Below, one piece after another: positions 1,507-20,347 of a DNA stretch of 21,509 bases. Position 1 is the first letter of the stretch. Each line of letters begins with the position of its first letter. Source of the DNA: a virus; IMG/VR virus record IMGVR_UViG_3300017781_000172, positions 1 to 21,509 of that record; one strand, given 5' to 3'. The translations under genes and the position numbers were made by a program. The notes below the pieces were generated by a model that searched no databases, had not been told where the DNA came from, and saw only the letters and a list, made by a program, of their open reading frames with translations.

Positions 1507-2139
1507 ATGAAACAACTACTAATTATCTTATTCATGCCATTAATATCTATGGCACAACAACAAACCTATGTACCAGATGATAACTTTGAGGCTGCCTTAG
1601 AGTATATGGGTATAGGTAACGGCATACCAAATGATGACTATGTTCACACATATAACATAAGTGATATACAATCATTAAATATTACAAATCAAGGTATATC
1701 TGACTTAACAGGTATAGAAGACTTCCTTAGCTTAGTAAGTCTACATGTTCAGTTAAACCAATTATCAAGTATAGATCTCAGTAATAATACAGCTTTAAAG
1801 TTTTTATATATTAGTGACAACCAGCTTACACAACTTGATATAAGCAATAATCCTGTGATAGAACTCATTTATGCATTTAACAATCCAGGCTTGGAATGTA
1901 TAAATGTGTATGATATAACTCAAGCAAATGATTGGCCTGCTGGTCAAATTATTCTTGATAATAACCAATACTTCAGTGAATCGTGCATGTTAACAGATGT
2001 ATCAGAGACATATCAGTATAGAAAAGTCGTGAAGATAATAGATCTATGGGGTAGAGATGTAATCACATCTAATCAACCTGTGTTCTTTATCTATGATGAT
2101 GGAAGCGTAGAAAGAAAAATAATAATAAACAATAACTAA
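1507..2139 (+). CDS. Secreted leucine-rich-repeat protein with type IX secretion-like C-terminal tail
   Basis: A 210-residue protein. Residues 1-16 form a signal peptide (cleavage likely after SMA). Residues 20-60 match the start typical of flavobacterial LRR proteins (YVPDDNFEAAL). Residues 60-125 hold short LRR units with the N-x-L-x-x-(I/L)-D-(L/I)-S-N-N pattern. Residues about 171-208 (KVVKIIDLWGRDV ... FFIYDDGSVERKI) resemble the C-terminal sorting tail used by the Bacteroidota type IX secretion system. If so, the protein is exported through the host Sec system and anchored or released at the cell surface. This is a host-type protein, probably captured by the phage. A role in altering the infected cell's surface or neighbours is inferred. 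LRR and tail assignments are strong; the role is unknown. Confidence 0.85.
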   Translation: MKQLLIILFMPLISMAQQQTYVPDDNFEAALEYMGIGNGIPNDDYVHTYNISDIQSLNITNQGISDLTGIEDFLSLVSLHVQLNQLSSIDLSNNTALKFLYISDNQLTQLDISNNPVIELIYAFNNPGLECINVYDITQANDWPAGQIILDNNQYFSESCMLTDVSETYQYRKVVKIIDLWGRDVITSNQPVFFIYDDGSVERKIIINNN

Positions 2140-7786: not shown

Positions 7787-8224
7787 TTATCTAACTATTT
7801 TAAGTTTAGATGCAATAGCATCAACTTTAGCTGCTAAATCTTTATCAACTGTGCCTTGAGCAACTTGATTAGATAACTCAACTATATCAGAATTATCATA
7901 GTCAACTGTTACTTCTTTAGCATAACCTTGCTCATTAGCTTGGAACTTAAGTAATTGTACTAAAGAAAATAAAACATATAAATCAGATTCCCATTCATCA
8001 AGTTTGATGTCCGGTATCCCATCTTTTTCATGGTTATGCTCAACTAGTTTATTGAATTTATCAATTGTCACAGGTAATCTTAATTGATCTTCCTCAGATG
8101 ATCTTAGAATAAATTTACTAGTTATACGTTGTAAACCAGCTATATAAGATGTATGAATTTGTAGATCTTTAATTACTTCTTGATCATATTCCCATACAGA
8201 GGCTGTTTTTTTATCTTCTGACAT
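7787..8224 (-). CDS. Unknown acidic helical protein on the minus strand
   Basis: A 145-residue protein. I start it at ATG 8224 (MSEDKKTASVWEYD). The open frame extends 16 codons upstream to 8272, but those residues are hydrophobic and lie across the promoter-like sequence and the start of the divergent UDG gene. The protein looks all-helical (EVIKDLQIHTSYIAGLQRITSKFI, WESDLYVLFSLVQLLKFQ) and ends in VDAIASKLKIVR. No known domain was recognised. It is one of only three minus-strand genes in the window and is placed between two + strand operons, which suggests different timing. A TAnnTTTG match sits just upstream on its strand. Confidence 0.75.
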   Translation of the reverse strand: MSEDKKTASVWEYDQEVIKDLQIHTSYIAGLQRITSKFILRSSEEDQLRLPVTIDKFNKLVEHNHEKDGIPDIKLDEWESDLYVLFSLVQLLKFQANEQGYAKEVTVDYDNSDIVELSNQVAQGTVDKDLAAKVDAIASKLKIVR

Positions 8225-8242
8225 AATAATAATTTTAATAAA

Positions 8243-8250
8243 CAAATATA
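8243..8250 (-). promoter_or_regulatory. Candidate Bacteroidota -7 box for the minus-strand genes
   Basis: On the minus strand this reads TATATTTG, a perfect match to the Bacteroidota TAnnTTTG core, 18 nt before the ATG at 8224. The expected -33 TTG about 19-20 nt upstream is only approximated (ATG). The box overlaps the start codon of the UDG gene, so minus-strand initiation and + strand expression could interfere. Confidence 0.4.
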
Positions 8251-8933
8251 TGCAAAATATTGACGTAAACATAATAAAACTCAGAGAAAAACTTAATGAA
8301 AATCTAATAAAAAGTGGATGGCATACAATGTTATCACCATATGTAAATGGTTTAAACTTTGATATAATAATAAACTATCTAGTAGACAGTGTAAATAATG
8401 GTAAACGTTTTACACCTAGATTTAAAGATATATTTAATGCATTCTATGAGTGCCCTTATGATGATATAAAGATTGTTATAGTAGGACAGGACCCATATCC
8501 ACAATTAGGATCAGCTGATGGAATAGCTTTTAGTTGTAGTAGAAAAGGTAAAGCTGAAAAGTCTCTACAATATATTAATAAAGCATTAGGAACTGATCAC
8601 GTTGATCTTAGATGCTGGGCTAATCAAGGTGTATTATTAATTAATACAGCATTTACATGTGAGATAAATAAAATAGGTTCTCACTATAACATATGGAAAA
8701 GCTTTACACAATACCTATTTGAAAATCTTAATAGACATAAGCCTAAGACAGTATTTATACTTATGGGTAAAAAAGCAGAAGAGTGGCAAACACTTATACC
8801 TAATCAAATAATTATAAAAGTACCACACCCAGCTTCAGCTGCATATAAGGGTGGTATATGGGATGATAAAGATGTCTTTAATAAAGCAAATATAGAGCTA
8901 GAAAAACAAGGTAAAACTTGTATTAACTGGTAA
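8250..8933 (+). CDS. ung: Uracil-DNA glycosylase, family 1
   Basis: A 227-residue enzyme that removes uracil from DNA. The water-activating motif is GQDPYP (79-84) with catalytic Asp81, followed by ADGIAFS (89-95). The uracil-binding Asn is N132 in GVLLINTAFT (127-136). The DNA-intercalation loop is HPASAAYKGG (193-202) with catalytic His193. Two departures from the usual family stand out. GQDPYH has become GQDPYP, and HPSPLS has become HPASAA, so the Leu that normally wedges into DNA is missing. Length matches the family. The gene sits at the head of the replication block, so it likely guards phage DNA during replication or helps degrade uracil-containing DNA. Confidence 0.93.
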   Translation: MQNIDVNIIKLREKLNENLIKSGWHTMLSPYVNGLNFDIIINYLVDSVNNGKRFTPRFKDIFNAFYECPYDDIKIVIVGQDPYPQLGSADGIAFSCSRKGKAEKSLQYINKALGTDHVDLRCWANQGVLLINTAFTCEINKIGSHYNIWKSFTQYLFENLNRHKPKTVFILMGKKAEEWQTLIPNQIIIKVPHPASAAYKGGIWDDKDVFNKANIELEKQGKTCINW

Positions 8934-9488: not shown

Positions 9489-9975
9489 TGAGGAAAAAGA
9501 AGAGTTAGTTCTTAATGGTTACTTAGAGAAAAAAGGTAACCAATATATTATGACACAAAGTGCTAAACTTATCTGTGTCAGGCTGGATAATTATTTTATC
9601 AAAGCTAAAAAGAAAACTGATATACAGTTAATGGGTAAAAACCATATAGATAGCATAAATAAGTATAGAGAAGTATTTCCTGCAAAGAAACTACCTAGCG
9701 GTAAACCAGCAAGAAATAATGTTAAAGCTCTTGGAGAAGCATTTAGATGGTTCTTTGAAACTTATGACTATAGCTGGCTTGATGTAATGAAAGCTACTAA
9801 AATGTATGTAAATGAGTACAGGGATGCAGAGTATATGTATATGCAAACCAGCCAGTACTTTATATGTAAACAAGATAAACATAGAGTAAAACACTCTACA
9901 TTAGCAGACTATTGTGATATGATTCTAGAAGGAGTCAGCACAGAGGATGATCACTTTAAAGAAAACGTAGTATGA
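9385..9975 (+). CDS. Replication accessory protein with winged-helix N-terminus
   Basis: A 196-residue protein. Residues about 10-60 read like a small winged helix (LTPNQTLILFGIKQG, then DEEKEELVLNGYLEKKGNQYIMT). After a linker come FPAKKLPSGKPARNN (79-93) and a helical region with FRWFFETYDYSWLDVMKATKMYV, and an aromatic run around MYMQTSQYFI. It overlaps the preceding gene by 104 nt in another frame and joins the DnaB-like gene by an ATGA overlap. Gene order between an origin-binding-type protein and the helicase suggests a helicase loader or replisome organiser. That is inference from context; no loader ATPase motif exists here. Confidence 0.75.
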   Translation: MWELFQKILKANLTPNQTLILFGIKQGVSLPNTTDEEKEELVLNGYLEKKGNQYIMTQSAKLICVRLDNYFIKAKKKTDIQLMGKNHIDSINKYREVFPAKKLPSGKPARNNVKALGEAFRWFFETYDYSWLDVMKATKMYVNEYRDAEYMYMQTSQYFICKQDKHRVKHSTLADYCDMILEGVSTEDDHFKENVV

Positions 9976-10928
9976 AGAAAACATCAGAAGCATGGGTTGG
10001 TCAATATGCAGCTTTTAATGAAGCACTTAAATATATGTATGCCAGATCAACTGGTGATGAGAAGTCTATATACACCCCATGGCCTAAGTTTAATGATGCT
10101 GCTACTGATGGATTAGAATGGAATACCTTAACTGTTATAGGTGGTAGACCTGGCTCAGGTAAAACACTAATTAAAGATCAGATCATAAGAGAATCATTTG
10201 CTCTAAATCCTAATGATAAGTTTAGAGTATTAGAGTTCCAGTTTGAGATGGTGGGTAGAACCTCAGCAATTAGAGAGTTTAGTTCTATAACCGGTAAGAC
10301 TTATAAAGAACTATGTAGTGCAGGATCAATCTTAAGTAATGATACATTAAACACATGTCATCAATATGCTAAAGAAAGAATAAAAAATCCTGTTGATATT
10401 ATAAGTACACCTATGACTGTTAACCAAATGCGTGAACAGATAGATGCCTATATGAATATGCATAAAGGAGTAAATACAATTATAACACTTGATCATACTA
10501 TGTTAGTTAAGAGAGCACCTTATCAGAATAGCACATTAGATATGTTATTTGAGTTAGGTGAGTTCTTTACACAGTGTAAGAGAGATTATCCTTGTTTGTT
10601 TATTGCTTTGTCACAACTTAATAGGAATATAGATAACCCGGATAGGGCTATAGATGGTAAGTATGGTAACTATATACTTGAGTCAGATATATTTGGCTCA
10701 GATGCAATGCTACAACACGCAGATATGTTAATAGGTATCAATAGACCAGCTAAACAAAAGATCAGATTTTATGGACCTGATAGATATATAATAGAGAATG
10801 ATAGGACATTAGTCTTACATTTTCTGAAAGCAAGGAATGGTGATGCTAGAATGAGTTTCTTCAAAGCAAAGTTTGAACAAATGCAAATTGAAGAGATGGC
10901 TACACCTGGACAACAAGAACGTAGATGA
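9972..10928 (+). CDS. DnaB-like replicative helicase
   Basis: A 318-residue RecA-fold ATPase equivalent to the C-terminal motor of DnaB. Walker A is GGRPGSGKT (57-65), Walker B TIITLDH (169-175), the DnaB-type SQLNR motif is at 214-218, and the segment SDIFGSDAMLQHADMLIGINRP (238-259) plus FLKARNGD (284-291, arginine-finger region) completes the set. The usual N-terminal helical domain of about 150 residues is largely missing; only some 50 residues precede the motor. It would unwind the phage fork as a hexamer. It is coupled by 4-nt ATGA overlaps to the genes before and after. Confidence 0.93.
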   Translation: MKKTSEAWVGQYAAFNEALKYMYARSTGDEKSIYTPWPKFNDAATDGLEWNTLTVIGGRPGSGKTLIKDQIIRESFALNPNDKFRVLEFQFEMVGRTSAIREFSSITGKTYKELCSAGSILSNDTLNTCHQYAKERIKNPVDIISTPMTVNQMREQIDAYMNMHKGVNTIITLDHTMLVKRAPYQNSTLDMLFELGEFFTQCKRDYPCLFIALSQLNRNIDNPDRAIDGKYGNYILESDIFGSDAMLQHADMLIGINRPAKQKIRFYGPDRYIIENDRTLVLHFLKARNGDARMSFFKAKFEQMQIEEMATPGQQERR

Positions 10929-11476
10929 TAAATACTAAAAATATAAATAATAAAGATATGGGACTAACACCCGCACAACGTAAAGAAAAAGTTGCAAAGC
11001 TTAGAGAAGAGCATCAAGAGTACTTTAATACTAGTAATCTAAAGAATGCACTATATATTCCTAAGATGGCTTATAGACCATCTGGTAAGGATGATCTACA
11101 TGTTAGTTTCTTTCCTAGTGAACTAGAGAAAGAGACAGACATATATACAGAGTTTGTAAGTATTGATTATGACTCAGAAGATCCTAAGAGAACGTTATAC
11201 TTATTAAAGCATAATCCTCATTGGAAAGAAGAGTTTGAATTAATAACCAGTAACTCTGGGTTTCAAAGACACATGGTTCCAGCTAGTGAGCTCAAAGTAA
11301 TAAATGATGTAACTAGTAGAGGACCAGAAAAAAAAGAGCAGGTAATATTAGATTTTGCAAATCCTAGTATACCTAATCCTGATGATGTAGTTGTAGACCC
11401 TTTGATAGAAAAGCTAGAAGAAATTAATCAAACATTAATAACATTAACCAAAGTAATAAATAAAATAGTAAAATAA
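10925..11476 (+). CDS. Unknown protein with C-terminal coiled coil
   Basis: A 183-residue protein. The N-terminal part is basic and helical (MGLTPAQRKEKVAKLREEHQ). The middle is strand-rich (DDLHVSFFPSELEK, TLYLLKHNPHWKEEFELIT). The C-terminus holds a likely coiled coil (PLIEKLEEINQTLITLTKVINKIV). No enzymatic motif was seen. It sits between the DnaB-like helicase and the Sak4-like ATPase with overlapping or touching ends, so it is probably part of the replisome or recombination complex. The coiled coil could mediate oligomerisation. Not recognised. Confidence 0.75.
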   Translation: MINTKNINNKDMGLTPAQRKEKVAKLREEHQEYFNTSNLKNALYIPKMAYRPSGKDDLHVSFFPSELEKETDIYTEFVSIDYDSEDPKRTLYLLKHNPHWKEEFELITSNSGFQRHMVPASELKVINDVTSRGPEKKEQVILDFANPSIPNPDDVVVDPLIEKLEEINQTLITLTKVINKIVK

Positions 11477-12160
11477 ATGGCACAAAGCGTATTAGTAATT
11501 GCAGATTCAGGTACAGGAAAGTCTACCTCAATCAGAACATTAGATCCTAAAGAGACTTTCATTATAAACATTGCAAATAAACCTTTACCATTCAAAGGCT
11601 ATAAGAGTAAATATACTCAGATTAGCAAAGAGAATCCAAAAGGTAATCTTACCTCTGCATCAAGTGCACCAGGTATAATCAAAGCAATGAAACATGTAAA
11701 TGATAAAATGCTAAACATCAAAACTATTGTTGTAGATGATTGGCAATATATGAGTTCTTTTGAGTATTTTGATAGAGCTAATGAAAAAGGTTATGATAAA
11801 TTCACTCAGATTGCAGCTAACTTAGCAATGGTTGCAAAGCTTCCAAAAGACTTGAGAGATGACCTAACTGTTATTTTCTTAACTCACTCAGAAGATTCAA
11901 CTGATATAAATGGAAACAGAAGAATTAAAGCAAAGACTATTGGTAAAATGATTGACAATACTCTTACTTTGGAAGGTTTGTTTTCTATTGTATTATTTGG
12001 TAAGGTAAATAAAAATGATGATGGTGAACTTGAATATGGTTTTGAAACCCAAAACAATGGAGAGAACACATGTAAATCACCTATGGGTATGTTTGAAGAT
12101 GAGTTCATCTCAAATGACCTTAAATTTGTAAAAGATTGTATTGAAGAATATAATCAATAA
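11477..12160 (+). CDS. Sak4-like RecA-fold ATPase (single-strand annealing/recombinase)
   Basis: A 227-residue ATPase. Walker A is DSGTGKST (10-17), only nine residues from the start, as usual in compact Sak4/AAA_24-type proteins. Walker B is IKTIVVDD (81-88) and the sensor strand is TVIFLTHSED (131-140), followed by KAKTIGKMID, the typical Sak4 segment. Sak4 proteins are known as minimal RecA/Rad51-like recombinases that anneal single strands with help from an SSB. The very next gene (25-nt gap) encodes an SSB-like protein, which supports the call. It starts directly after the stop of the preceding gene. Confidence 0.85.
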   Translation: MAQSVLVIADSGTGKSTSIRTLDPKETFIINIANKPLPFKGYKSKYTQISKENPKGNLTSASSAPGIIKAMKHVNDKMLNIKTIVVDDWQYMSSFEYFDRANEKGYDKFTQIAANLAMVAKLPKDLRDDLTVIFLTHSEDSTDINGNRRIKAKTIGKMIDNTLTLEGLFSIVLFGKVNKNDDGELEYGFETQNNGENTCKSPMGMFEDEFISNDLKFVKDCIEEYNQ

Positions 12161-12185
12161 TTAATAATTAATAAAAAAGTAAATT

Positions 12186-12860
12186 ATGTTAAATACTAAA
12201 GACATGTCTGCCGGATCAGGTGGAACTAAACCAGTAATTGGAACAGGTAATCACAAAGTAAAGATTAATTCAATTACATTTGATCAAACACCATATGATG
12301 CAGACGCATACAATATAACATTACATATAGAAGGTGAGCCTGTATCAGGTGAGTTTAATGGTTTCTTAAAAGATATGAATAATCCTAATGGACCAAAATA
12401 TCAAGGTCAGGTAGGTAGAGTTAGATTCTCACCATATCCATTTAAAGATGCTACATTAAATAATGGTAATGAAATAAGCAGAGACACAGAAGTCTTAAAA
12501 GCTATGGTATTTCTTGCTGAGGTAGTTAATAAAAGAAGTGAGCTTGATGCTATTGAGGCAAATACAATTGAAGACTTTATGGCAAAGGCGTCAAAGGTAT
12601 GTGCTGATACTGGATACATTAATGCATGCTTAGGTGCACGTGAGTGGGAAAACAAAGAAGGTTATGTAAATAATGATTTGTTCTTACCTAAGAGAAGTAG
12701 AAATGGTGTACCATTGGAAGCATTAGACACTGAAAACTCTAATCTATTAACATTTGATAAGAATGATACCAATCATTTCAGACCAATGATTAAGAAAGAT
12801 GCACCTACTACAACCAGCTTTGAACCAGCTGTAGCTAGTGGTGATGATTTTGATTTATAG
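12186..12860 (+). CDS. SSB-like single-stranded DNA-binding protein (DUF669-like)
   Basis: A 224-residue protein. It opens MLNTKDMSAGSGGTKPVI and continues with strands typical of OB-fold ssDNA-binding proteins (HKVKINSITFD, YNITLHIEGEPV). A helical middle and a disordered linker (around 190-215) lead to the tail GDDFDL. An acidic tail with a hydrophobic end is the mark of SSBs that recruit repair and replication partners. It directly follows the Sak4-like ATPase and precedes a strong terminator and then the primase. I would call it the phage's replication SSB; the OB-fold itself is inferred from strand pattern. Confidence 0.75.
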   Translation: MLNTKDMSAGSGGTKPVIGTGNHKVKINSITFDQTPYDADAYNITLHIEGEPVSGEFNGFLKDMNNPNGPKYQGQVGRVRFSPYPFKDATLNNGNEISRDTEVLKAMVFLAEVVNKRSELDAIEANTIEDFMAKASKVCADTGYINACLGAREWENKEGYVNNDLFLPKRSRNGVPLEALDTENSNLLTFDKNDTNHFRPMIKKDAPTTTSFEPAVASGDDFDL

Positions 12861-12871
12861 TTAGTTAATTT

Positions 12872-12915
12872 AAAAGAAAGGGGGTAATGTTATGTTATCC
12901 CCATTTCTTTTTCTT
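12872..12915 (+). terminator. Strong intrinsic terminator after the SSB-like gene
   Basis: AAAAGAAA (12872-12879) pairs with TTTCTTTT (12904-12911), and inside it GGGG (12881-12884) pairs with CCCC (12899-12902), with TAA/TTA closing the loop and one mismatch. A T-rich tail continues to TTTTC. It ends the operon that starts near 8955. The primase ATG follows only 12 nt later, so the primase must depend on read-through or on an unseen promoter. Confidence 0.75.
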
Positions 12916-12926
12916 ATTTTTAAATT

Positions 12927-13904
12927 ATGTTTAACACTAAAAATTTTGTTATAGAAGGACAAGATGTACCAAGTACGTGGGTGTTTCAATACTATTTAGA
13001 TTTACCAGAGAAGTTAACTGGTCAGGATTTAAAGATTGTATCAGTTTTTAATCCTAATGAAAGAACTCCTAGCTTCTGTATATACGTTGATAAAACAATT
13101 ATGCAATATAAGTTTAAGGATTTCTCTACAGGTAAAAGTGGTAATAAAATTGACTTAGTTAAATTAATGTTCAATGTAGATTTCCCAACTGCTATGCAAA
13201 AAATAGTAAAAGATTACAACACATATGTAAGATCATCAGAATATATAGAACAAAAATTTCAACCTCAATCTAAGTGGGAAATAGATTTTATAAAGCTTAG
13301 AGAGTGGACAATAGAAGATAAAGATTATTGGTTATCATATAGAATTGGCAAGACAATGCTAGACACCTATAATGTTAAACCAATAGAATATTATAACCTT
13401 ATAAAAGAAGAAACAGGAGAAATTAGAAAGTTGAGGATTGCTAGTAAATATATGTATGGCTACTTTGATAAGAACAAAGAAGTATATAAAATTTACCAAC
13501 CTCATAGTAAAAGTCACAAGTTCCATAAAGTTAAACCTTATTTACAAGGTTTTGATCAACTACAATTTAACCAGCCTTATTTAGTTATATGTTCATCTCT
13601 TAAGGATGCAATGTGTCTTAAAGGTATGGGATATAATTTAGAAGTGTTAGCACCAGATAGTGAGAATACTATGATCAAACCTCATATAATAGAACATCTT
13701 AAGAAAAAATATAAAACAATAATAACTCTTTTTGATAATGATGACGCAGGTAAAGCTGCTATCAAGAAGTATCATGAAATGTATAACTTATCAGGAATGA
13801 TCTTCCCAACAGCTAAAGATATATCTGATGCTATGAAAGAAAATGATTTTGGATATGTACATTCTATTATACAACCAATATTAAAAAAGATTTTAAATAA
13901 ATAA
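12927..13904 (+). CDS. DnaG-like primase with degenerate zinc and TOPRIM motifs
   Basis: A 325-residue protein. Residues about 38-93 align with the CHC2 zinc domain of DnaG: FNPNERTPSF (41-50) stands for CPFHxxKTPSF, and FKDFSTGKSGNKIDLV (63-78) for the FGCGxxGD part, so all zinc ligands are gone while the surrounding fold residues remain. The TOPRIM part (about 217-302) keeps LFDNDDAG (268-275) and KDISD (297-301), but the usual Glu of the EG motif is Ser (VICSSLKDAM, 220-229). It is short, with no helicase-interaction domain. It probably makes primers on the lagging strand, but the changes leave real doubt about catalytic activity. Overall family call is secure. Confidence 0.85.
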   Translation: MFNTKNFVIEGQDVPSTWVFQYYLDLPEKLTGQDLKIVSVFNPNERTPSFCIYVDKTIMQYKFKDFSTGKSGNKIDLVKLMFNVDFPTAMQKIVKDYNTYVRSSEYIEQKFQPQSKWEIDFIKLREWTIEDKDYWLSYRIGKTMLDTYNVKPIEYYNLIKEETGEIRKLRIASKYMYGYFDKNKEVYKIYQPHSKSHKFHKVKPYLQGFDQLQFNQPYLVICSSLKDAMCLKGMGYNLEVLAPDSENTMIKPHIIEHLKKKYKTIITLFDNDDAGKAAIKKYHEMYNLSGMIFPTAKDISDAMKENDFGYVHSIIQPILKKILNK

Positions 13905-13906
13905 TT

Positions 13907-14293
13907 ATGACTAAAAGAAGATGGTTTATACCTGGTAATGTACCTAGCAGTAAAAATGGTAGGCGTTGGACAGGTAAATACTTTATTGCTAGCAAAGCTG
14001 TAATGAATTACAGAAAGGCTACCAAGGAACATTATACTAAATTAACTGAAGAGTTTAAAACACAAGTTGCTGAACTCAATCTGCCAGTAAAAATAAGCTT
14101 TGAATTTATTAGAGGCAGCCGTCATAAGTTTGATTATATAAATCCTGCACAAACAGTGCAAGATGATATGGTTAAGTATGGATGGATTGAAGATGATAAT
14201 GCTGAGTTCATTATACCAACATTTAAACAATATACTTATGATAAAGAGAACCCCGGTGTATGGATAGAAATAATTTTAGATGAAGAAAAATAA
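13907..14293 (+). CDS. rusA: RusA-like Holliday junction resolvase
   Basis: A 128-residue protein matching the RusA family in length and order. It starts with FIPGNVPSSKNGRR (7-20), the family's conserved opening. The acidic active site is D76 (HKFDYINPAQ), D86/D87 (VQDDM) and D96/D97 (IEDDN), in the usual spacing. It would cut four-way junctions formed during recombination-dependent replication. The gene starts 2 nt after the primase stop, with an AATT-ATG context, and overlaps the next gene by 14 nt. Confidence 0.88.
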   Translation: MTKRRWFIPGNVPSSKNGRRWTGKYFIASKAVMNYRKATKEHYTKLTEEFKTQVAELNLPVKISFEFIRGSRHKFDYINPAQTVQDDMVKYGWIEDDNAEFIIPTFKQYTYDKENPGVWIEIILDEEK

Positions 14294-14579
14294 AAAAATT
14301 ATAACAATTGAAGAGTTCTTTAGATTAAAACAAATGTTTGCTGGTTCAACAGAAGATAAGGCAATGGCTTTTGAAATATGGGACAATCAATATAAAGATA
14401 GAAACATAATAGATCCTTTAATGTTTAAAGGACTTATGTTTACAGATAGAAAGAGTTTTGCAAAAGCAGTGAAAGTAGATTTTACTACTAAAACTGGAAA
14501 AATACTTTACACATTTTTATCTGAACAACAAGCAGATGAAATTTATAAACAAATTTTAGATAAATTAATGAATGATTAA
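14280..14579 (+). CDS. Small unknown protein preceding the VWA gene
   Basis: A 99-residue helical, basic protein (MKKNKKIITIEEFFRLKQMF ... LSEQQADEIYKQILDKLMND). No recognised domain. It overlaps the resolvase gene by 14 nt and the VWA gene by 8 nt, so it is part of the same translation unit. Possible adaptor or partner for either; unknown. Confidence 0.7.
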   Translation: MKKNKKIITIEEFFRLKQMFAGSTEDKAMAFEIWDNQYKDRNIIDPLMFKGLMFTDRKSFAKAVKVDFTTKTGKILYTFLSEQQADEIYKQILDKLMND

Positions 14580-15735
14580 TATACAAGACCAGGTTGCAAG
14601 AACAACCAAAACATTAATATTTACTGAGCCCTTTTACGGGCTCTTTTTAATTGGTATCAATAAACAATATAGTGAGCGTATTCCTACAGCAGGTGTAAGT
14701 AAGCATGGTATTGGTATGCAATTGACTATAAACCCAGAGTTTTACAATGAACTTAGTGAAGACCACAGATTTGGTTTAATAAAACATGAACTATTGCATA
14801 TTGCATTTGGCCATTTATTATTAAGAGATACATATTCTAATCATAAGTTATTTAATATAGCAGCTGATTTGGAGATCAACCAGTACATACTGGAAAGTAA
14901 ACTACCTAAAGGAGGTTTATTACTATCAAGTTTTCCTGAATTAAATCTTCCTAAGAAAGCAGGTACAAGAGAATATTATGATCTGTTGATGCAAGCAAAG
15001 AAAGATGGCACATCTCCATCACTTGATAATTTGATGAATCAAATGGACGGTGAATCACAGTATTGTCATAGTACATGGGAAGAGTTTGATGAGCTACCTG
15101 AAGCTGATAAGAAATTAGTACAAAAACAAATAGAACATCAGTTAAAGGACTCAGCAGAACAAACAGCTAAGAAACAAGGTCATATACCAGGGGAGTTAGC
15201 AAATATTATACACAGACTAATGCATATTGACCCACCTAAATTTGACTGGAAAGGTTATTTAAAAAGATTTGTGGGTAATTCAAGTATAGTATATACTAAA
15301 AAGTTGAGACGTAAGTATAACAAACGTTATGCTGCAAATCCTGGCCTAAAGATCAAGTTTAAAAATCATATCCTTGTTGGTGTTGACACAAGCGGATCAG
15401 TAAATAATGATGAGCTAAAAGAATTCTTTAATGAATTAGCACATATGGTTAAGACTGGTCATAAGATAACAGTAGCACAGTGTGATACACAGCTTAAGAG
15501 TGTTAAGGAGTTTAACCCTAAACATGATTGGGAAATACATGGACGTGGTGGAACAAGTTTCCAACCTGTAATAGATCATTACAATGAAAAGAAAGGAGCA
15601 TATACTGCTCTAGTATATTTAACAGATGGTGAAGCTTATTCTCCAGATAACTGCCCTAAAAATACCTTATGGTGTTTAAGTAGTATATCTGAGATGAATA
15701 ATGATTTACCAGGACAAGTAATAAAATTAAATTAA
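14572..15735 (+). CDS. Putative metallopeptidase with VWA-like domain (DUF2201-type)
   Basis: A 387-residue protein with two parts. The N-terminal zincin-like domain has HELLHIAFGH (72-81), including HExxH at 72-76, and FNIAADLEINQYI (94-106), a companion motif of this family. The C-terminal VWA-like domain carries the MIDAS metal site: DTSGS (272-276), T328 in RGGTSF, and TDGE (351-354). Such proteins occur in tandem with MoxR-type AAA+ ATPases, and here the ATPase gene starts 8 nt after the stop. The pair is known to act as a remodelling or chaperone machine on protein substrates. Whether the HExxH is catalytic is untested. A terminator-like hairpin sits in codons 19-26. Confidence 0.88.
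   Translation: MINIQDQVARTTKTLIFTEPFYGLFLIGINKQYSERIPTAGVSKHGIGMQLTINPEFYNELSEDHRFGLIKHELLHIAFGHLLLRDTYSNHKLFNIAADLEINQYILESKLPKGGLLLSSFPELNLPKKAGTREYYDLLMQAKKDGTSPSLDNLMNQMDGESQYCHSTWEEFDELPEADKKLVQKQIEHQLKDSAEQTAKKQGHIPGELANIIHRLMHIDPPKFDWKGYLKRFVGNSSIVYTKKLRRKYNKRYAANPGLKIKFKNHILVGVDTSGSVNNDELKEFFNELAHMVKTGHKITVAQCDTQLKSVKEFNPKHDWEIHGRGGTSFQPVIDHYNEKKGAYTALVYLTDGEAYSPDNCPKNTLWCLSSISEMNNDLPGQVIKLN
14626..14648 (+). terminator. Intrinsic-terminator-like hairpin inside the VWA gene
   Basis: GAGCCC (14626-14631) pairs perfectly with GGGCTC (14638-14643), loop TTTTAC, followed by TTTTT (14644-14648). This meets the usual description of a Rho-independent terminator, yet it lies 54 nt into the VWA coding sequence, where it encodes EPFYGLF. 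It could attenuate transcription of the VWA/MoxR block; translation by a closely following ribosome would prevent folding. Confidence 0.5.
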
Positions 15736-15743
15736 TAGAAAAA

Positions 15744-17015
15744 ATGGCACAAGTAAACTTAAATGTAACAGAATTAAAAGGCTTTGTAAATCACATAATT
15801 AAAAACAATAGGTATTTACAAGAAAATAATAAGAACTCAGTATCCGTAGAGGTGGTTGGTGAATCAGGTATTGGTAAGACTTCTACTATAGTAGAGCTAG
15901 CTCAAGATAATAATCTAAAGTTTGTAAAACTTAATCTAGCACAGATAGAAGAGCTAGGTGACTTAGTAGGCTTTCCTGTACGTCAATTTCAGATGTATAA
16001 AGAAAAAGTAATACCAACTAAAAAGTTAGACAACTTAAGTATGGTTACTGCTACACAAAGAGCTGCAGGCAATAGTCTAGCTAATCTAAACACAAGCACT
16101 ACTAAAAAAGTAGGCATGTGGGTTGATGAGCTAGCAGTACAAGAGTATCTAAAGAATGGATACAAGATGACCGGTAAGAATAGAATGTCTTATTGTGCTC
16201 CTGAATGGATTGCTGATGCAAAAGCAGGTGGTATCTTATTACTAGATGACTGGAATCGTGCTGACACAAGATTTATACAAGCAGTTATGGAATTAATAGA
16301 TAGACAGTCTTATATCTCTTGGACTCTACCTAAAGATTGGCATATTATATTAACAGCTAACCCGGATAACGGTGACTATATGGTTAACAGTGTAGATTCT
16401 GCACAGAAGACCAGATATGTAACAGCTAATCTTAAGTTTGATGTTAATGTATGGGCTCAATGGGCAGAGTCTGCTAATATAGATACAAGATGTATTAACT
16501 TTTTGTTATTACATCCTGAGCTTGTAACTCAAGAAACAAATGCAAGATCAATTACAACATTCTTTAATTCAATATCTAGTTTTGAAGAGTTTGAAGCTAA
16601 CTTATCTTTAATTCAAATGATTGGTGAAGGTAGTGTTGGTGATGCTTTTGCTTCTATGTTTACAACTTTTATTAATAACAAGCTTGATAAGTTGATAACA
16701 CCTACAGATTTATTGACTCATGATAATGAGCAGTATATTCTTGGTGAACTTAGATCTTGTATTGGTAAAGATGATACTTACCGTGCAGATATTGCTGCTA
16801 CACTAGCAACAAGACTTGGTAACTTTGCTGTAGTATATTCTAAAGAAAATACTATTGGGCAAAAGCACACTGATAGATTGATTTCACTATGTACTAAAGA
16901 TTACTTTACTAATGATCTTAAGTATCTAATTGTAAGAACAATCTTTAATGGTAATAAAAAGAAGTTCAACAAAATGATGATGAACCCAGATATAATTAAA
17001 ATGACAATGAAATAA
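15744..17015 (+). CDS. MoxR-type AAA+ ATPase
   Basis: A 423-residue AAA+ protein. Walker A is GESGIGKT (39-46), then LNLAQIEELGDLVGFPV (64-79), the MoxR/dynein-like segment where the ring contacts substrate. Walker B is GGILLLDDWNRA (162-173), sensor 1 LTANPDN (203-209) and a sensor 2-type NARSITTF follows near residue 265. The C-terminal third is helical. MoxR ATPases work with VWA proteins, and the partner gene lies just upstream. The energy of ATP would be used to remodel or load a partner; target unknown. The large C-terminal region beyond the AAA+ core is not recognised. Confidence 0.9.
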   Translation: MAQVNLNVTELKGFVNHIIKNNRYLQENNKNSVSVEVVGESGIGKTSTIVELAQDNNLKFVKLNLAQIEELGDLVGFPVRQFQMYKEKVIPTKKLDNLSMVTATQRAAGNSLANLNTSTTKKVGMWVDELAVQEYLKNGYKMTGKNRMSYCAPEWIADAKAGGILLLDDWNRADTRFIQAVMELIDRQSYISWTLPKDWHIILTANPDNGDYMVNSVDSAQKTRYVTANLKFDVNVWAQWAESANIDTRCINFLLLHPELVTQETNARSITTFFNSISSFEEFEANLSLIQMIGEGSVGDAFASMFTTFINNKLDKLITPTDLLTHDNEQYILGELRSCIGKDDTYRADIAATLATRLGNFAVVYSKENTIGQKHTDRLISLCTKDYFTNDLKYLIVRTIFNGNKKKFNKMMMNPDIIKMTMK

Positions 17016-17016
17016 A

Positions 17017-18054
17017 ATGGCAAATAAATCAGTATATCAAAATTTTGATAATGATGCATTGACATACTTTGGACTAGCAGCTGACCCGTTATACGGGTTA
17101 GTTACTAGTACAGGTGTTGAGAAGGTATTATGTACTCAAGATGAAAAAACATATGATAAAATACACAGTATATTAACGGTCCCTACAGAAGATGACCAAA
17201 CTTTTAGAACTAAAAAGAAAGCTTTTATATTACCCAGGTGTGGGGTATCACAAGATAGATTAAAAGCAGCTCTTAAAGAGCATAGTATAACTGTAACAAA
17301 TGACTATGAACTAGCAGATCTTATAATAGGGCATGATGATATAAGCACAGATGACAAGTTATCTAATGGTGAAAACATTCCATCTACAATTATGATGAAT
17401 AAGTTGTGGAACTATGAGACTACATTTGGAGATAAGAATAGTATAGGTGTATTAAAGAAAATATCTGATGCAAATATACAGTGTATTGTTACACCTAAAG
17501 TAACTGATAAAGTAAGATACTATGATATTGATATGCATGATAACATATTAGATGTTTGGATGCTTTCAGGTATGGCAGTAAATCTTGCACATATTATTAA
17601 TACTACAGATGTAAGTGTTATTGATACTGAGACAGTATTGCATGCATCAGCTACAAGGTTAGTTTTAGATGAACAACTTCTTGCAGATCTTAAAGCTCAA
17701 TTAAATTCTTATAGTGATGATAAAGCTCTTGCTATAAAGATTGTTCCTACTATAGACTATACTAAGAACTATCATTTATTATGGCAGCTAGCACAAGACT
17801 GTGGTAGTCTTGAGTATGCTGACAATAGAGATAAAGATTTACAGTATTGGCTTGATGTATCTAAATTTGTTAGTTTTGGTAGAAAAAGTGCACAAACTAT
17901 GATAAACTGGTTAGAAGTAAATGATAAATTATGTAAAACAACCTTTAGATACTTAGAGCCTATAGTCAGATCAGAAATAAGCATACAAAACAGAGACCTT
18001 TATACATTTAAAGTATCTGTTAAAAAAGAATACCTAAAATATTTAAAAAATTAA
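17017..18054 (+). CDS. Large unknown protein, first of a pair
   Basis: A 345-residue soluble protein starting 1 nt after the MoxR stop. Near the N-terminus is AADPLYGL (21-28), encoded by a hairpin-forming sequence. Residues about 68-108 (KAFILPRCG, then LKEHSITVTNDYELADLIIG) look like one small alpha/beta unit, with a pattern that resembles the next protein's residues 84-118. The rest shows alternating helices and strands without known motifs. Because it is tightly linked to the MoxR/VWA pair it could be a substrate or third component of that machine (inference). Confidence 0.8.
   Translation: MANKSVYQNFDNDALTYFGLAADPLYGLVTSTGVEKVLCTQDEKTYDKIHSILTVPTEDDQTFRTKKKAFILPRCGVSQDRLKAALKEHSITVTNDYELADLIIGHDDISTDDKLSNGENIPSTIMMNKLWNYETTFGDKNSIGVLKKISDANIQCIVTPKVTDKVRYYDIDMHDNILDVWMLSGMAVNLAHIINTTDVSVIDTETVLHASATRLVLDEQLLADLKAQLNSYSDDKALAIKIVPTIDYTKNYHLLWQLAQDCGSLEYADNRDKDLQYWLDVSKFVSFGRKSAQTMINWLEVNDKLCKTTFRYLEPIVRSEISIQNRDLYTFKVSVKKEYLKYLKN
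17081..17101 (+). other. Coding-sequence hairpin
   Basis: CTGACCCG (17081-17088) pairs over 8 bp, with one G-U, with CGGGTTAG (17094-17101), leaving the 5-nt loop TTATA. No T-run follows. It encodes ADPLYGL near the protein N-terminus, mirroring the hairpin at 14626 that encodes EPFYGL. Confidence 0.35.
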
Positions 18055-18056
18055 TT

Positions 18057-19238
18057 ATGATTAAAAAATTTCACTTACATATAAATATTACTCCTGAAAC
18101 AACAATTACTAATGATGAGAGTATAGTAGATAATAATAAAACAACCAATAAACTTTTAGCTGATGCAATTAAATTAGAAGAAACTGGTGTGTATATTGGA
18201 ACAACTAATGGTTGGACATTGGATAAACAATTAGTAGATACTGTATTGCCTAAGCGTCCTGATGTAATTAATATACAAGATAAAAAACTATATAGATGGC
18301 CTCATCTAGATTTACCAAGACAAAAGGTAGATCTTTTAAAAGATAAGTTCAATTGTAAAGTTATTAGGAATGTAGATAAAGCAGATATAGAAATTATTTC
18401 TATGAATGGAATGAGAAAATTAGTAGAAATGGATTGGCATGCTTCTTTTAGTTATAGTGGTATGTATAATTTTCTATCCTTTCTTAAGTCTGCAGACATC
18501 TTAACAAAATCTTCATTAGATAAATGTAGAGACATATTAGAAGGCATACCTAAAGAATCTAGAATTAGTATTACTAGAGATCATCCTTGGAATATAGATT
18601 CTGCAGGAGAACTTTTTCAAACATCTAAAATAATAAATAAGTATTTAGATAGTAATAGGCCTAAAGGAGTAGGTAGAGAAGCAATAGTTAAAGGTAAAGA
18701 TAAAATAGATACTTATCATCATATAATTAATACATCATCACAAGTAGTATTTGATGTTGACATAAATAATATAATTGATGAAGATCTAGCTGTTATTAAA
18801 AATACTGAATTAGAAAAAATACAACAAATGATTTCTAGTAGTGATAGAGATAATAGATCTTTAGCTTTAGAGATGCTAGCAAACTGTAACGTTAATAAAT
18901 CTTTTGATGTTGTTAGTATTATATATTACTGGTATTATGATTGGTTAAAGGATACTAATAACTGGAATACTGTAAATGTAAAAGCACTAAAATCAAAAAT
19001 GAAAGCCTTTGAAGGTGGTGGTTCTACAAGTTCTATTTACAGTTATAATAACTATATTAAGAATTTGGTTGAACATGATAAATTAACTAAGTTTGCTATA
19101 GATGATACCCGTAAAAGATTATATAAACATATACTTTTAAATCTAGTAGGTACAGATAATGAGGTGGCTGTATTTAATGTAGATATTGACTCTTTAGTAT
19201 TAAAAAATGAACTAATAGAAAATATAACAAATGACTAA
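18057..19238 (+). CDS. Large unknown protein, second of a pair
   Basis: A 393-residue protein starting 2 nt after its neighbour (AATT-ATG start). Residues about 84-118 (LDLPRQKVDLLKDKF followed by KADIEIISMNG) resemble the LPR...ADLII unit of the upstream protein. Residues about 250-300 (LEKIQQMISSSDRDNRSLAL, EMLANCN) form a helical repeat-like segment reminiscent of HEAT-type helices. No enzymatic motifs. Together with the upstream protein it may form a partner complex for the MoxR/VWA system; the role is unknown. Confidence 0.8.
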   Translation: MIKKFHLHINITPETTITNDESIVDNNKTTNKLLADAIKLEETGVYIGTTNGWTLDKQLVDTVLPKRPDVINIQDKKLYRWPHLDLPRQKVDLLKDKFNCKVIRNVDKADIEIISMNGMRKLVEMDWHASFSYSGMYNFLSFLKSADILTKSSLDKCRDILEGIPKESRISITRDHPWNIDSAGELFQTSKIINKYLDSNRPKGVGREAIVKGKDKIDTYHHIINTSSQVVFDVDINNIIDEDLAVIKNTELEKIQQMISSSDRDNRSLALEMLANCNVNKSFDVVSIIYYWYYDWLKDTNNWNTVNVKALKSKMKAFEGGGSTSSIYSYNNYIKNLVEHDKLTKFAIDDTRKRLYKHILLNLVGTDNEVAVFNVDIDSLVLKNELIENITND

Positions 19239-19371
19239 AAAAGAAGATAGAAAAGCGTTGATAGAGACTATACTATTGTATAAGGAAAAGATAAGACAAA
19301 CTCCTGGTATAAAAACAATGATACAGAAACTACAACAAAAATTAGATAAATTAAATGATAAACGTAAATAA
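19231..19371 (+). CDS. Small basic helical protein
   Basis: A 46-residue frame, ATG at 19231 to TAA at 19371, starting MTKKEDRKALIETILLYKEK and ending LQQKLDKLNDKRK. It is a plausible amphipathic helix or coiled coil and is strongly basic. It overlaps the gene before by 8 nt and the gene after by 17 nt, filling what would otherwise be a 116-nt gap in a tightly packed operon. Function unknown. Confidence 0.65.
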   Translation: MTKKEDRKALIETILLYKEKIRQTPGIKTMIQKLQQKLDKLNDKRK

Positions 19372-20347
19372 AGAAAAAGAGGAGAAGTTTTATGCAAATA
19401 AAGATTTTTGCTTTAGCTACTCCTCTTTAAATAAATTATTATTTTCACCATCCTTATTTTACAAGGACTATATACTGTGGGACCGTGAGGTCAGAACAGA
19501 CAAACATCTTATAGAAGGCAAGCTTATACATTGCTTGCTGTTTGAAGAAGATAAAGTTGAAGAAAAGTTCAGCATTGTACCTGGTAAAAGCCCTAGTGAT
19601 AATATCAGAAAGGTATTAAAAGATATGTCTCTTTATACAGATGCAGAGACACTGGTTGATTGTGAAGACTCTATAATTCTTGACTCACTTAAGAATCTAA
19701 ATTTATATCAATCTTTAAAAGCTGATGACTCAAGGCTATCTAAGATAAGAACACAAGATAATGAGCCGTATTGGAAGTTTATTGGTAATAGTAACGTTGA
19801 TGTTGTAGATCAAGATACTCTTCTTAGATGTAAAGAAAAGGTTAGTATACTTAAAGTAAATAAAGATGTGATGTCTTTATTTGAAGAAGTAACAACTGAC
19901 TTTGATTTAGATCCTATTGAAACACATAGTGAGAGGTATCTTAAATCTGATTTAATTGGTTTGGATTTTGGCCTGCACGGCTATATAGATTATTATAAGA
20001 TTGACACTGATAAAAAAGAAGTTACTATATGTGATCTTAAAACAACCGGTAAGACAGTTTCTGACTTTAAAGACACTGTAGACTTTTATAATTACTGGTT
20101 ACAGGCTGCTATTTATATGAAGTTAGTCTATGATACATTAGGAGATGATGCTGATGAGTATGAATTAACTTTTAAATTTATAGTTATTGATACATATGAT
20201 CAAGTTTATGTATTTGAAGTATCAAAAGATACAATGGGTAGCTGGGCAAATGGCCTTGGTGGTGCTATAAAGACTGCTAAATTTCATTATAACAGTAGAA
20301 ATTACTCATTACCTATTGAGTTTTTATCAAATAAAGTTACCTTATAG
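19355..20347 (+). CDS. PD-(D/E)XK exonuclease (RecE/RecB-like)
   Basis: A 330-residue nuclease. FSYSSLNKLLFSPSLFY (20-36) is the usual opening helix of RecB-type nucleases. The GxxxH motif is GKLIHCLLF (55-63). The active site is D212 in GYIDYY and D227/K229 in CDLKTTGK (226-233), and the QxxxY motif is QAAIY (250-254). This corresponds to phage exonucleases that resect double-strand ends to give 3' single strands for annealing by proteins such as Sak4. The glutamate of the classic ExK is Asp here, which is common in this family. It likely works with the Sak4-like and SSB-like proteins, although it lies 7 kb downstream. Confidence 0.88.
   Translation: MINVNKEKEEKFYANKDFCFSYSSLNKLLFSPSLFYKDYILWDREVRTDKHLIEGKLIHCLLFEEDKVEEKFSIVPGKSPSDNIRKVLKDMSLYTDAETLVDCEDSIILDSLKNLNLYQSLKADDSRLSKIRTQDNEPYWKFIGNSNVDVVDQDTLLRCKEKVSILKVNKDVMSLFEEVTTDFDLDPIETHSERYLKSDLIGLDFGLHGYIDYYKIDTDKKEVTICDLKTTGKTVSDFKDTVDFYNYWLQAAIYMKLVYDTLGDDADEYELTFKFIVIDTYDQVYVFEVSKDTMGSWANGLGGAIKTAKFHYNSRNYSLPIEFLSNKVTL

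What the first reader, a model, noticed from the sequence alone, without database searches (positions are those of the whole stretch)
14572..19238. Four-gene MoxR/VWA block inside a phage replication region
A HExxH plus VWA protein, a MoxR-type AAA+ ATPase and two large unknown proteins are joined with gaps of 1-8 nt and sit between RusA and an exonuclease. MoxR/VWA pairs are known remodelling machines in bacteria. The two unrecognised proteins always directly downstream here could be dedicated substrates or adaptors, making this a candidate undescribed phage system acting on replication or on host proteins.
Basis: partly seen in the sequence, partly recalled or inferred. Interest (0 to 1): 0.65.

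Follow-up and report, generated by a model that had tools for sequence, protein, structure and literature searches.

The report
crAss-like phage MoxR/VWA block with BRCT-like partners
Marine relatives of the gut phage crAssphage carry, among their DNA-replication genes, a molecular motor with its protein-cutting partner plus two look-alike proteins of a BRCT-like fold, which suggests a protein-remodelling machine that serves viral DNA replication or recombination.

Summary
In detail: A (metallopeptidase + VWA, DUF2201), B (MoxR-type AAA+), C and D are four contiguous genes (gaps 8, 1 and 2 nt). A small gene (o99) separates RusA from A. The source is a marine crAss-like phage. The A-B pair is not new in phages: it is N4 gp24/gp25, two core genes of unknown function, and was described in jumbo phages. 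New are its place in a crAss-like replication block and its partners. C and D have no Pfam family, but confident models give both a BRCT-like domain with an insertion plus a HEAT-like domain; they are probably distant paralogues. The linkage was tested. The order prim-RusA-A-B-C-D-Exo is constant wherever contigs are long enough. In a deeper branch, A-B-C stay together although the resolvase and exonuclease belong to other families and D is absent. Isolated marine crAss-like phi14:2 has RusA-gp42-exonuclease with no block; gut crAss phages carry one different AAA+ ATPase in that slot. Most likely B and A form a MoxR/VWA remodeller, with C and D as adaptors or clients, acting on replication or recombination complexes. 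Linkage is well supported; biochemical function is inferred. New variant of a known kind; interest about 0.5.

The parts
14572..15735 (+). Gene A: N-terminal zincin-type metallopeptidase (HExxH at residues 72-76, H81, N95, D99) plus C-terminal VWA domain with full MIDAS set (D272, S274, S276, T328, D352); DUF2201 family, N4 gp25-like
   Evidence: Pfam above cut-offs; phrog_1314 7e-67; residues invariant in 11 proteins incl. distant phages
15744..17015 (+). Gene B: MoxR-type AAA+ ATPase, N4 gp24-like; Walker A GESGIGK, Walker B LLLDD, NRA motif, N206, R224, R268; catalytic Glu replaced by Asp169
   Evidence: phrog_1297 2e-33; midasin is best PDB match; motifs
17017..18054 (+). Gene C: BRCT-like domain (about 60-215, with an insertion after the third strand) plus HEAT/ARM-like helical domain (about 215-345)
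   Evidence: AlphaFold2 pLDDT 85; BRCT chains dominate top rows, best Z 7.4; sub-threshold Pfam BRCT at 67-119
18057..19238 (+). Gene D: N-terminal beta-rich part, BRCT-like domain (about 72-245) plus HEAT-like helical domain (about 246-393); probable paralogue of C
   Evidence: AlphaFold2 pLDDT 87.5; all of the top 31 rows are BRCT entries, best Z 7.6
14280..14579 (+). o99: small gene between RusA and A; has a short motif resembling one in the C and D helical domains; phi14:2 has an unaligned 92-aa gene at the same place
13907..14293 (+). RusA-like Holliday junction resolvase (left flank), 54.5% identical to phi14:2 RusA
   Evidence: phrog_1682 3e-22
19355..20347 (+). PD-(D/E)XK / exonuclease VIII-like nuclease (right flank)
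   Evidence: PF12705 1e-6, phrog_412 3e-13
9972..13904 (+). Upstream replication genes: DnaB-type helicase, 183-aa protein, Sak4-like ATPase, SSB-position protein, primase; homologues and synteny in crAss-like phages

Best explanation
The block is a dedicated AAA+ remodelling module of a marine crAss-like phage clade. B would form a MoxR-type ATPase ring. A would dock on it through its VWA domain, bind a target through its MIDAS site and carry a metallopeptidase that may clip that target. C and D, probable paralogues with a BRCT-like fold plus a HEAT-like domain, would be adaptors that bring the machine to phage DNA-replication or recombination complexes, or would be the clients it remodels. 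Shown here: gene content, intact active-site residues, predicted folds of C and D, linkage of A-B-C beyond local synteny, and position among replication genes. Inferred: complex formation, target, proteolysis, and the adaptor role.
For: A-B-C-D order constant in every locus with enough flank. A-B-C kept together in L245-L248 although the resolvase is DUF1064-type instead of RusA (L246, L248) and the exonuclease is 5'-3' FEN-type instead of exoVIII-like. The block lies between DnaB/Sak4/primase/resolvase and exonuclease/PolB and, in the two whole genomes checked, on the strand opposite to TerL and portal and about 20-80 kb away. Gut crAss phages put a different AAA+ ATPase in the same slot. In Schitoviridae the pair is core and middle-transcribed (PMC4193335) and can lie next to helicase and DNA polymerase genes. 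Catalytic and MIDAS residues are invariant; B is about as conserved as the replicative helicase (80% and 79% in L052). BRCT-like plus HEAT-like folds of C and D. VWA docking in the MoxR ring pore is established for NorQ/NorD (PMC9976466, PMC13036017).
Against: No physical interaction was tested. BRCT assignment rests on predicted models with Z 7.4-7.6, below the level taken as secure, and Pfam BRCT stays below its cut-off (16.8 vs 21.3 bits). The hallmark GG and alpha-3 Trp of BRCT are not evident. Direct C-D profile similarity is weak (P 0.006 one way, 0.05 the other). Asp instead of Glu in Walker B could mean slow or no ATP hydrolysis. Gene position is only indirect evidence for function. 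phi14:2 lives without the block.
Confidence: 0.5

Rival explanations
1. The machine serves virion assembly or maturation: MoxR/VWA as chaperone pair, the metallopeptidase trimming structural proteins, C and D as assembly scaffolds.
For: Proposed for the same pair in jumbo phages, citing the tail-assembly MoxR/VWA of Acidianus two-tailed virus (PMC7824862). In K64-1 and XbC2 the pair is flanked by structural genes. Some N4-like roseophages have virion proteins encoded near gp24/25 (PMC4193335).
Against: Here the block is inside the replication gene block, far from TerL and portal and on the opposite strand. The crAss review places replication genes in a separate, earlier transcribed module (PMC10136315). 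N4 gp24/25 are middle genes.
Confidence: 0.22
2. Host takeover or counter-defence: the remodeller/peptidase acts on host proteins (for example replication, transcription or defence complexes), with C and D as target-recognition adaptors; fast divergence of D reflects adaptation to hosts.
For: D diverges fast (23-65% identity) while A and B are nearly constant. The block is absent from phi14:2, so it is not essential to all crAss-like phages.
Against: No match of C or D to known defence or anti-defence families in PADLOC. C, with the same architecture, is much more conserved. Constant position among replication genes is unusual for accessory counter-defence genes.
Confidence: 0.18
3. No functional link of C/D with A-B: they are simply neighbours kept by clade-wide synteny of the replication operon.
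For: Nearly all loci come from one clade in which the whole region is syntenic. The A-B pair occurs without C/D in other phages and in bacteria.
Against: In L245-L248 flanking genes have been replaced (RusA in L246/L248, exoVIII-like gene, extra genes) yet A-B-C remain contiguous. No C or D was found away from A-B in the viral scans; one of 141 bacterial-genome pattern matches was a true relative and it also had the whole block.
Confidence: 0.1

Closest known systems
N4 gp24 (AAA) / gp25 (vWFA), core pair of Schitoviridae
   Same: Same two protein families, neighbouring genes, middle transcription in N4, near replication genes in some members
   Different: No C/D-like partners recognised next to it; sequence identity of A only 26-29%; function unknown there too
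MoxR + metallopeptidase-vWA pair of group 2.2 jumbo phages (PMC7824862)
   Same: MoxR ATPase next to a vWA protein fused to an N-terminal metallopeptidase
   Different: Proposed for virion assembly; other neighbours; no BRCT/HEAT partners reported
Bacterial DUF2201 + MoxR pairs
   Same: Adjacent A-like and B-like genes
   Different: No C/D; two of four contigs instead have a leucine-rich-repeat-like neighbour (my reading of the ORFs)
NorQ/NorD, RavA/ViaA, midasin (MoxR/VWA remodellers)
   Same: MoxR-class AAA+ ring with VWA/MIDAS partner, likely same mechanical principle; midasin is B's best PDB match
   Different: VWA partner here carries a metallopeptidase; Walker B Asp; different genomic setting
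crAss-like phage gp34 AAA+ ATPase (cr113_1)
   Same: AAA+ ATPase in the same slot between resolvase and exonuclease
   Different: Single gene, PF00004-type AAA, not alignable to B beyond the P-loop, no VWA, C or D
SprT/SPRTN-type proteases with AAA+ unfoldase (DNA-protein crosslink removal)
   Same: HExxH peptidase plus AAA+ motor in a DNA-replication context; weak SprT-family match of A (E 0.0046)
   Different: Far below the SprT cut-off; different domain layout; no DNA-crosslink evidence

Membership tests
DUF2201 metallopeptidase-VWA (gene A) | Both Pfam domains above curated cut-off | tested here: met
   PF13203 70.1/23.2 bits, PF09967 58.3/26.4 bits
DUF2201 metallopeptidase-VWA (gene A) | Intact HExxH and MIDAS DxSxS...T...D | tested here: met
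   H72, E73, H76, D272, S274, S276, T328, D352 invariant in 11 diverse proteins
MoxR AAA+ ATPases (gene B) | Walker A, sensor 1 Asn, Arg finger, sensor 2 Arg | tested here: met
   G39, G42, G44, K45, N206, R224, R268 invariant among 10 diverse proteins; roles assigned by position, from general knowledge of AAA+
MoxR AAA+ ATPases (gene B) | Walker B with catalytic Glu (DE) followed by NRA | tested here: inconclusive
   NRA present, but D168-D169 instead of DE in the clade and in L246/L248
MoxR AAA+ ATPases (gene B) | Pfam AAA_5/AAA_3 above cut-off | tested here: not met
   AAA_5 17.7 vs 22 bits, AAA_3 16.6 vs 27; PHROG ATPase match 2e-33. So I call it MoxR-type, not a certified member
MoxR AAA+ ATPases (gene B) | Hexameric ring bound by the VWA partner | not testable with these tools
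   No complex prediction available
BRCT domain (C, D) | BRCT fold | tested here: inconclusive
   BRCT entries dominate the top structural matches of both models (Z up to 7.4 and 7.6); Z below 8 may be a common arrangement
BRCT domain (C, D) | Pfam BRCT above cut-off | tested here: not met
   C: best 16.8 vs 21.3 bits, at residues 67-119; D: BRCT not among its Pfam matches. Hence 'BRCT-like', not BRCT family
BRCT domain (C, D) | GG turn and conserved Trp in helix 3 | tested here: not met
   Not conserved in alignments A1 and A2, judged by eye
N4 gp24/gp25 pair | Adjacent homologues of both genes | tested here: met
   A matches N4 gp25-like proteins of Schitoviridae over >90% of length; B aligns with the gp24-like neighbour at 21%
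vWA-MoxR ternary conflict systems (VMAP) | Third component VMAP and effector domain | tested here: inconclusive
   No Pfam or PADLOC match of C or D to such components; absence of a hit is not proof
Crassvirales | Portal/TerL homology and replication-gene synteny | tested here: met
   cr113_1 portal found in 10 of 10 long family contigs; TerL, PolB, DnaB, primase and RNAP pieces in the whole genomes checked, MCP in one of them. The window itself is a 21.5-kb fragment without portal, assigned through its relatives

The most novel reading that the evidence does not exclude
A phage-encoded, replication-coupled segregase-protease: the MoxR ring and its metallopeptidase-VWA partner pull apart and clip proteins stuck on replicating or recombining phage DNA, with two BRCT-like/HEAT-like adaptors as DNA-complex sensors, a viral counterpart in principle to AAA+/SprT-type roadblock or crosslink clearance. 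It would also give a function to the N4 core pair gp24/gp25.
Probability: 0.12. Interest if true: 0.82.

Novelty: new variant of a known kind. Interest (0 to 1): 0.5.

Why it matters
A MoxR/metallopeptidase-VWA pair is one of the few conserved core functions of N4-like phages without any known role, and it recurs in jumbo phages and bacteria. The marine crAss-like phages place it firmly in a replication-recombination operon and supply it with two candidate partner proteins of a recognisable fold, and relatives with D missing, or with the whole block missing, offer natural comparisons. That turns 'core gene of unknown function' into concrete tests: does the pair act on replication complexes, and are BRCT-like proteins its adaptors or clients?

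Tried and rejected
C and D against INPHARED phages by tblastn: nothing at E 1. C and D profiles against PDB sequences: nothing. PHROG matches of C and D: weak and inconsistent. Gut 'Bacteriophage sp.' contigs with A and B homologues looked like a second phage group; their ORFs show they are bacterial chromosome pieces. cr113_1 gp34 tested as homologue of B: only P-loop-level similarity. Neighbours of the pair in other phages searched for BRCT/HEAT partners: none by Pfam. Head-on profile comparison of C and D gave only weak support for paralogy; I kept 'probable' because of shared architecture and because the C model matches two proteins of one crAss-like-relative phage (ctz6O13) in BFVD. Considered and dropped: HNH endonuclease (PHROG label of A, contradicted by Pfam and motifs); BREX BrxF (E 0.005, P-loop only); a separate promoter before the block (matches at chance level).
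Full report
Observation. The four ORFs exist exactly as described: A 14572-15735, B 15744-17015, C 17017-18054, D 18057-19238, all on the + strand, separated by 8, 1 and 2 nt. RusA (13907-14293) lies upstream and a PD-(D/E)XK exonuclease (19355-20347) downstream. A small gene, o99 (14280-14579), lies between RusA and A and overlaps both. No terminator-like site falls in the gaps between the four genes and promoter-like sites are at chance level, so a single operon is likely but not proven.

What A and B are. A has both DUF2201 domains above the Pfam cut-offs. Its HExxH motif, further candidate zinc-site residues (H81, N95, D99) and all five MIDAS residues are invariant in an alignment with very distant phage homologues. 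PHROG calls this family 'HNH endonuclease'; motif and Pfam evidence show that this label is wrong. B has a Walker A motif, Walker B followed by NRA, and conserved sensor and arginine positions. Its Pfam AAA scores are below cut-off, but it matches the PHROG ATPase family at 2e-33 and midasin is the best PDB match. The usual Walker B glutamate is aspartate (D169) in the whole clade and in the deeper branch.

What C and D are. Neither has a Pfam family. AlphaFold2 models built from 37 and 33 family sequences are confident (pLDDT 85.0 and 87.5). For C, BRCT domains take most of the top 24 structural matches (best Z 7.4) over residues 60-215, and HEAT/ARM/TOG-type domains match 215-290. For D, BRCT domains take all of the top 31 rows (best Z 7.6) over 72-245, and HEAT-like domains match 246-323. 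In both, my reading of the secondary structure is that an insertion separates the third strand from the second helix. Sub-threshold Pfam BRCT matches in C lie at 67-119, the same place. I call both BRCT-like. They are probably paralogues: same architecture; C's best profile match among 15 comparison profiles is D (P 0.006), though the reverse comparison gives only P 0.05 and ranks o99 first; and the C model matches two proteins of one phage, ctz6O13, as well as one of crAss-like ctYsL76, at E about 1e-7 in BFVD.

Source. The window is a 21.5-kb IMG/VR record. Its helicase and primase are closest to crAss-like phages. The cr113_1 portal is found in all ten long family contigs searched, and TerL, portal, PolB and other crAss genes were found in two relatives of 113-116 kb. 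RusA, uracil-DNA glycosylase, helicase, Sak4 and primase have homologues in the cultured marine crAss-like phage phi14:2. Marine Bacteroidota hosts are an inference.

Linkage. Of 223 family loci fetched (many contigs more than once; at least 106 distinct contigs), 192 show prim-RusA-A-B-C-D-Exo. The rest either run into a contig end or are the four loci L245-L248. Those four form a deeper branch: A, B and C are contiguous and D is not detected. ORFs of L246 and L248 show a DUF1064-type resolvase in place of RusA and a FEN-type 5'-3' exonuclease in place of the exoVIII-like enzyme. So A-B-C stay together when neighbours change. Nature also gives empty sites: phi14:2 has RusA, a 92-aa gene, then exonuclease, and L282 has primase and RusA without A-D. 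Gut crAss phages have one unrelated AAA+ ATPase in this slot.

Prior knowledge. The A-B pair equals N4 gp24/gp25, two of the 14 core genes of N4-like phages, function unknown, middle-transcribed (PMC4193335, PMC2784036). The jumbo-phage survey reported a MoxR/metallopeptidase-vWA pair and proposed virion assembly (PMC7824862). The literature searches made here found no report of the pair in crAss-like phages or with BRCT-like partners; the library holds open-licence papers only.

Mechanism. From NorQ/NorD, the VWA protein plugs the MoxR ring and ATP hydrolysis moves a linker in the VWA protein to remodel a target (PMC9976466 and PMC13036017 abstracts). By analogy B would be the motor and A the coupling protein with an added peptidase; C and D, which carry no recognisable catalytic family, are best placed as adaptors or clients. 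The position amid helicase, Sak4-like recombinase, primase, resolvase, exonuclease and polymerase genes, on the strand opposite to TerL and portal in two whole genomes, favours replication or recombination complexes over virion assembly. This step is inference. Confidence: A-B-C functionally linked about 0.85; acting in replication/recombination about 0.55; C/D adaptors rather than clients about even.

Verdict. A real, conserved and previously unremarked arrangement: known motor pair, new setting, new partners. New variant of a known kind, interest 0.5; the segregase-protease reading would deserve about 0.8 if true.

Noticed in passing
window 14572-15735 and phage records listed: PHROG phrog_1314 is labelled 'HNH endonuclease', but its members carry HExxH and VWA/MIDAS motifs; the wrong label appears in many RefSeq phage records.
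   Followed up: yes
L026:6309, L041:5666, L050:5000, L053:5213, L061:6328, L254:5291 (start positions): An optional conserved ORF of about 128-133 aa ('MGRYYxGDIEGKFxFGxQSS...CSFTAEL') sits between A and B in some relatives.
   Followed up: partly
window 15744-17015, residue D169 of B: Walker B catalytic Glu replaced by Asp in the whole clade and in the deeper branch, Glu in most other phages aligned; may tune or slow ATP hydrolysis.
   Followed up: partly
L238-L241 (MT837993, MT836813, MT838754, MT837937): Records named 'Bacteriophage sp.' whose ORFs look like bacterial chromosome pieces carrying a DUF2201+MoxR pair.
   Followed up: yes
L212 (WLWP01000004.1, 114,697 b): A contig binned in a Pseudomonadales MAG carries the full phage block and has the length of the family's genomes; probably a phage contig mis-binned.
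   Followed up: partly
window 1507-2139: Secreted-type leucine-rich-repeat protein with weak internalin-type matches.
   Followed up: no
window 7787-8272, minus strand: A 161-aa minus-strand ORF lies between plus-strand genes beside the uracil-DNA glycosylase gene.
   Followed up: no
L246:4761-5621: A gene of the spore photoproduct lyase family (radical SAM) directly precedes A in a deep-branch relative.
   Followed up: no
G001 (contig of L046): Portal, TerL and exonuclease matches are split into pieces, which suggests indel errors in that assembly.
   Followed up: no
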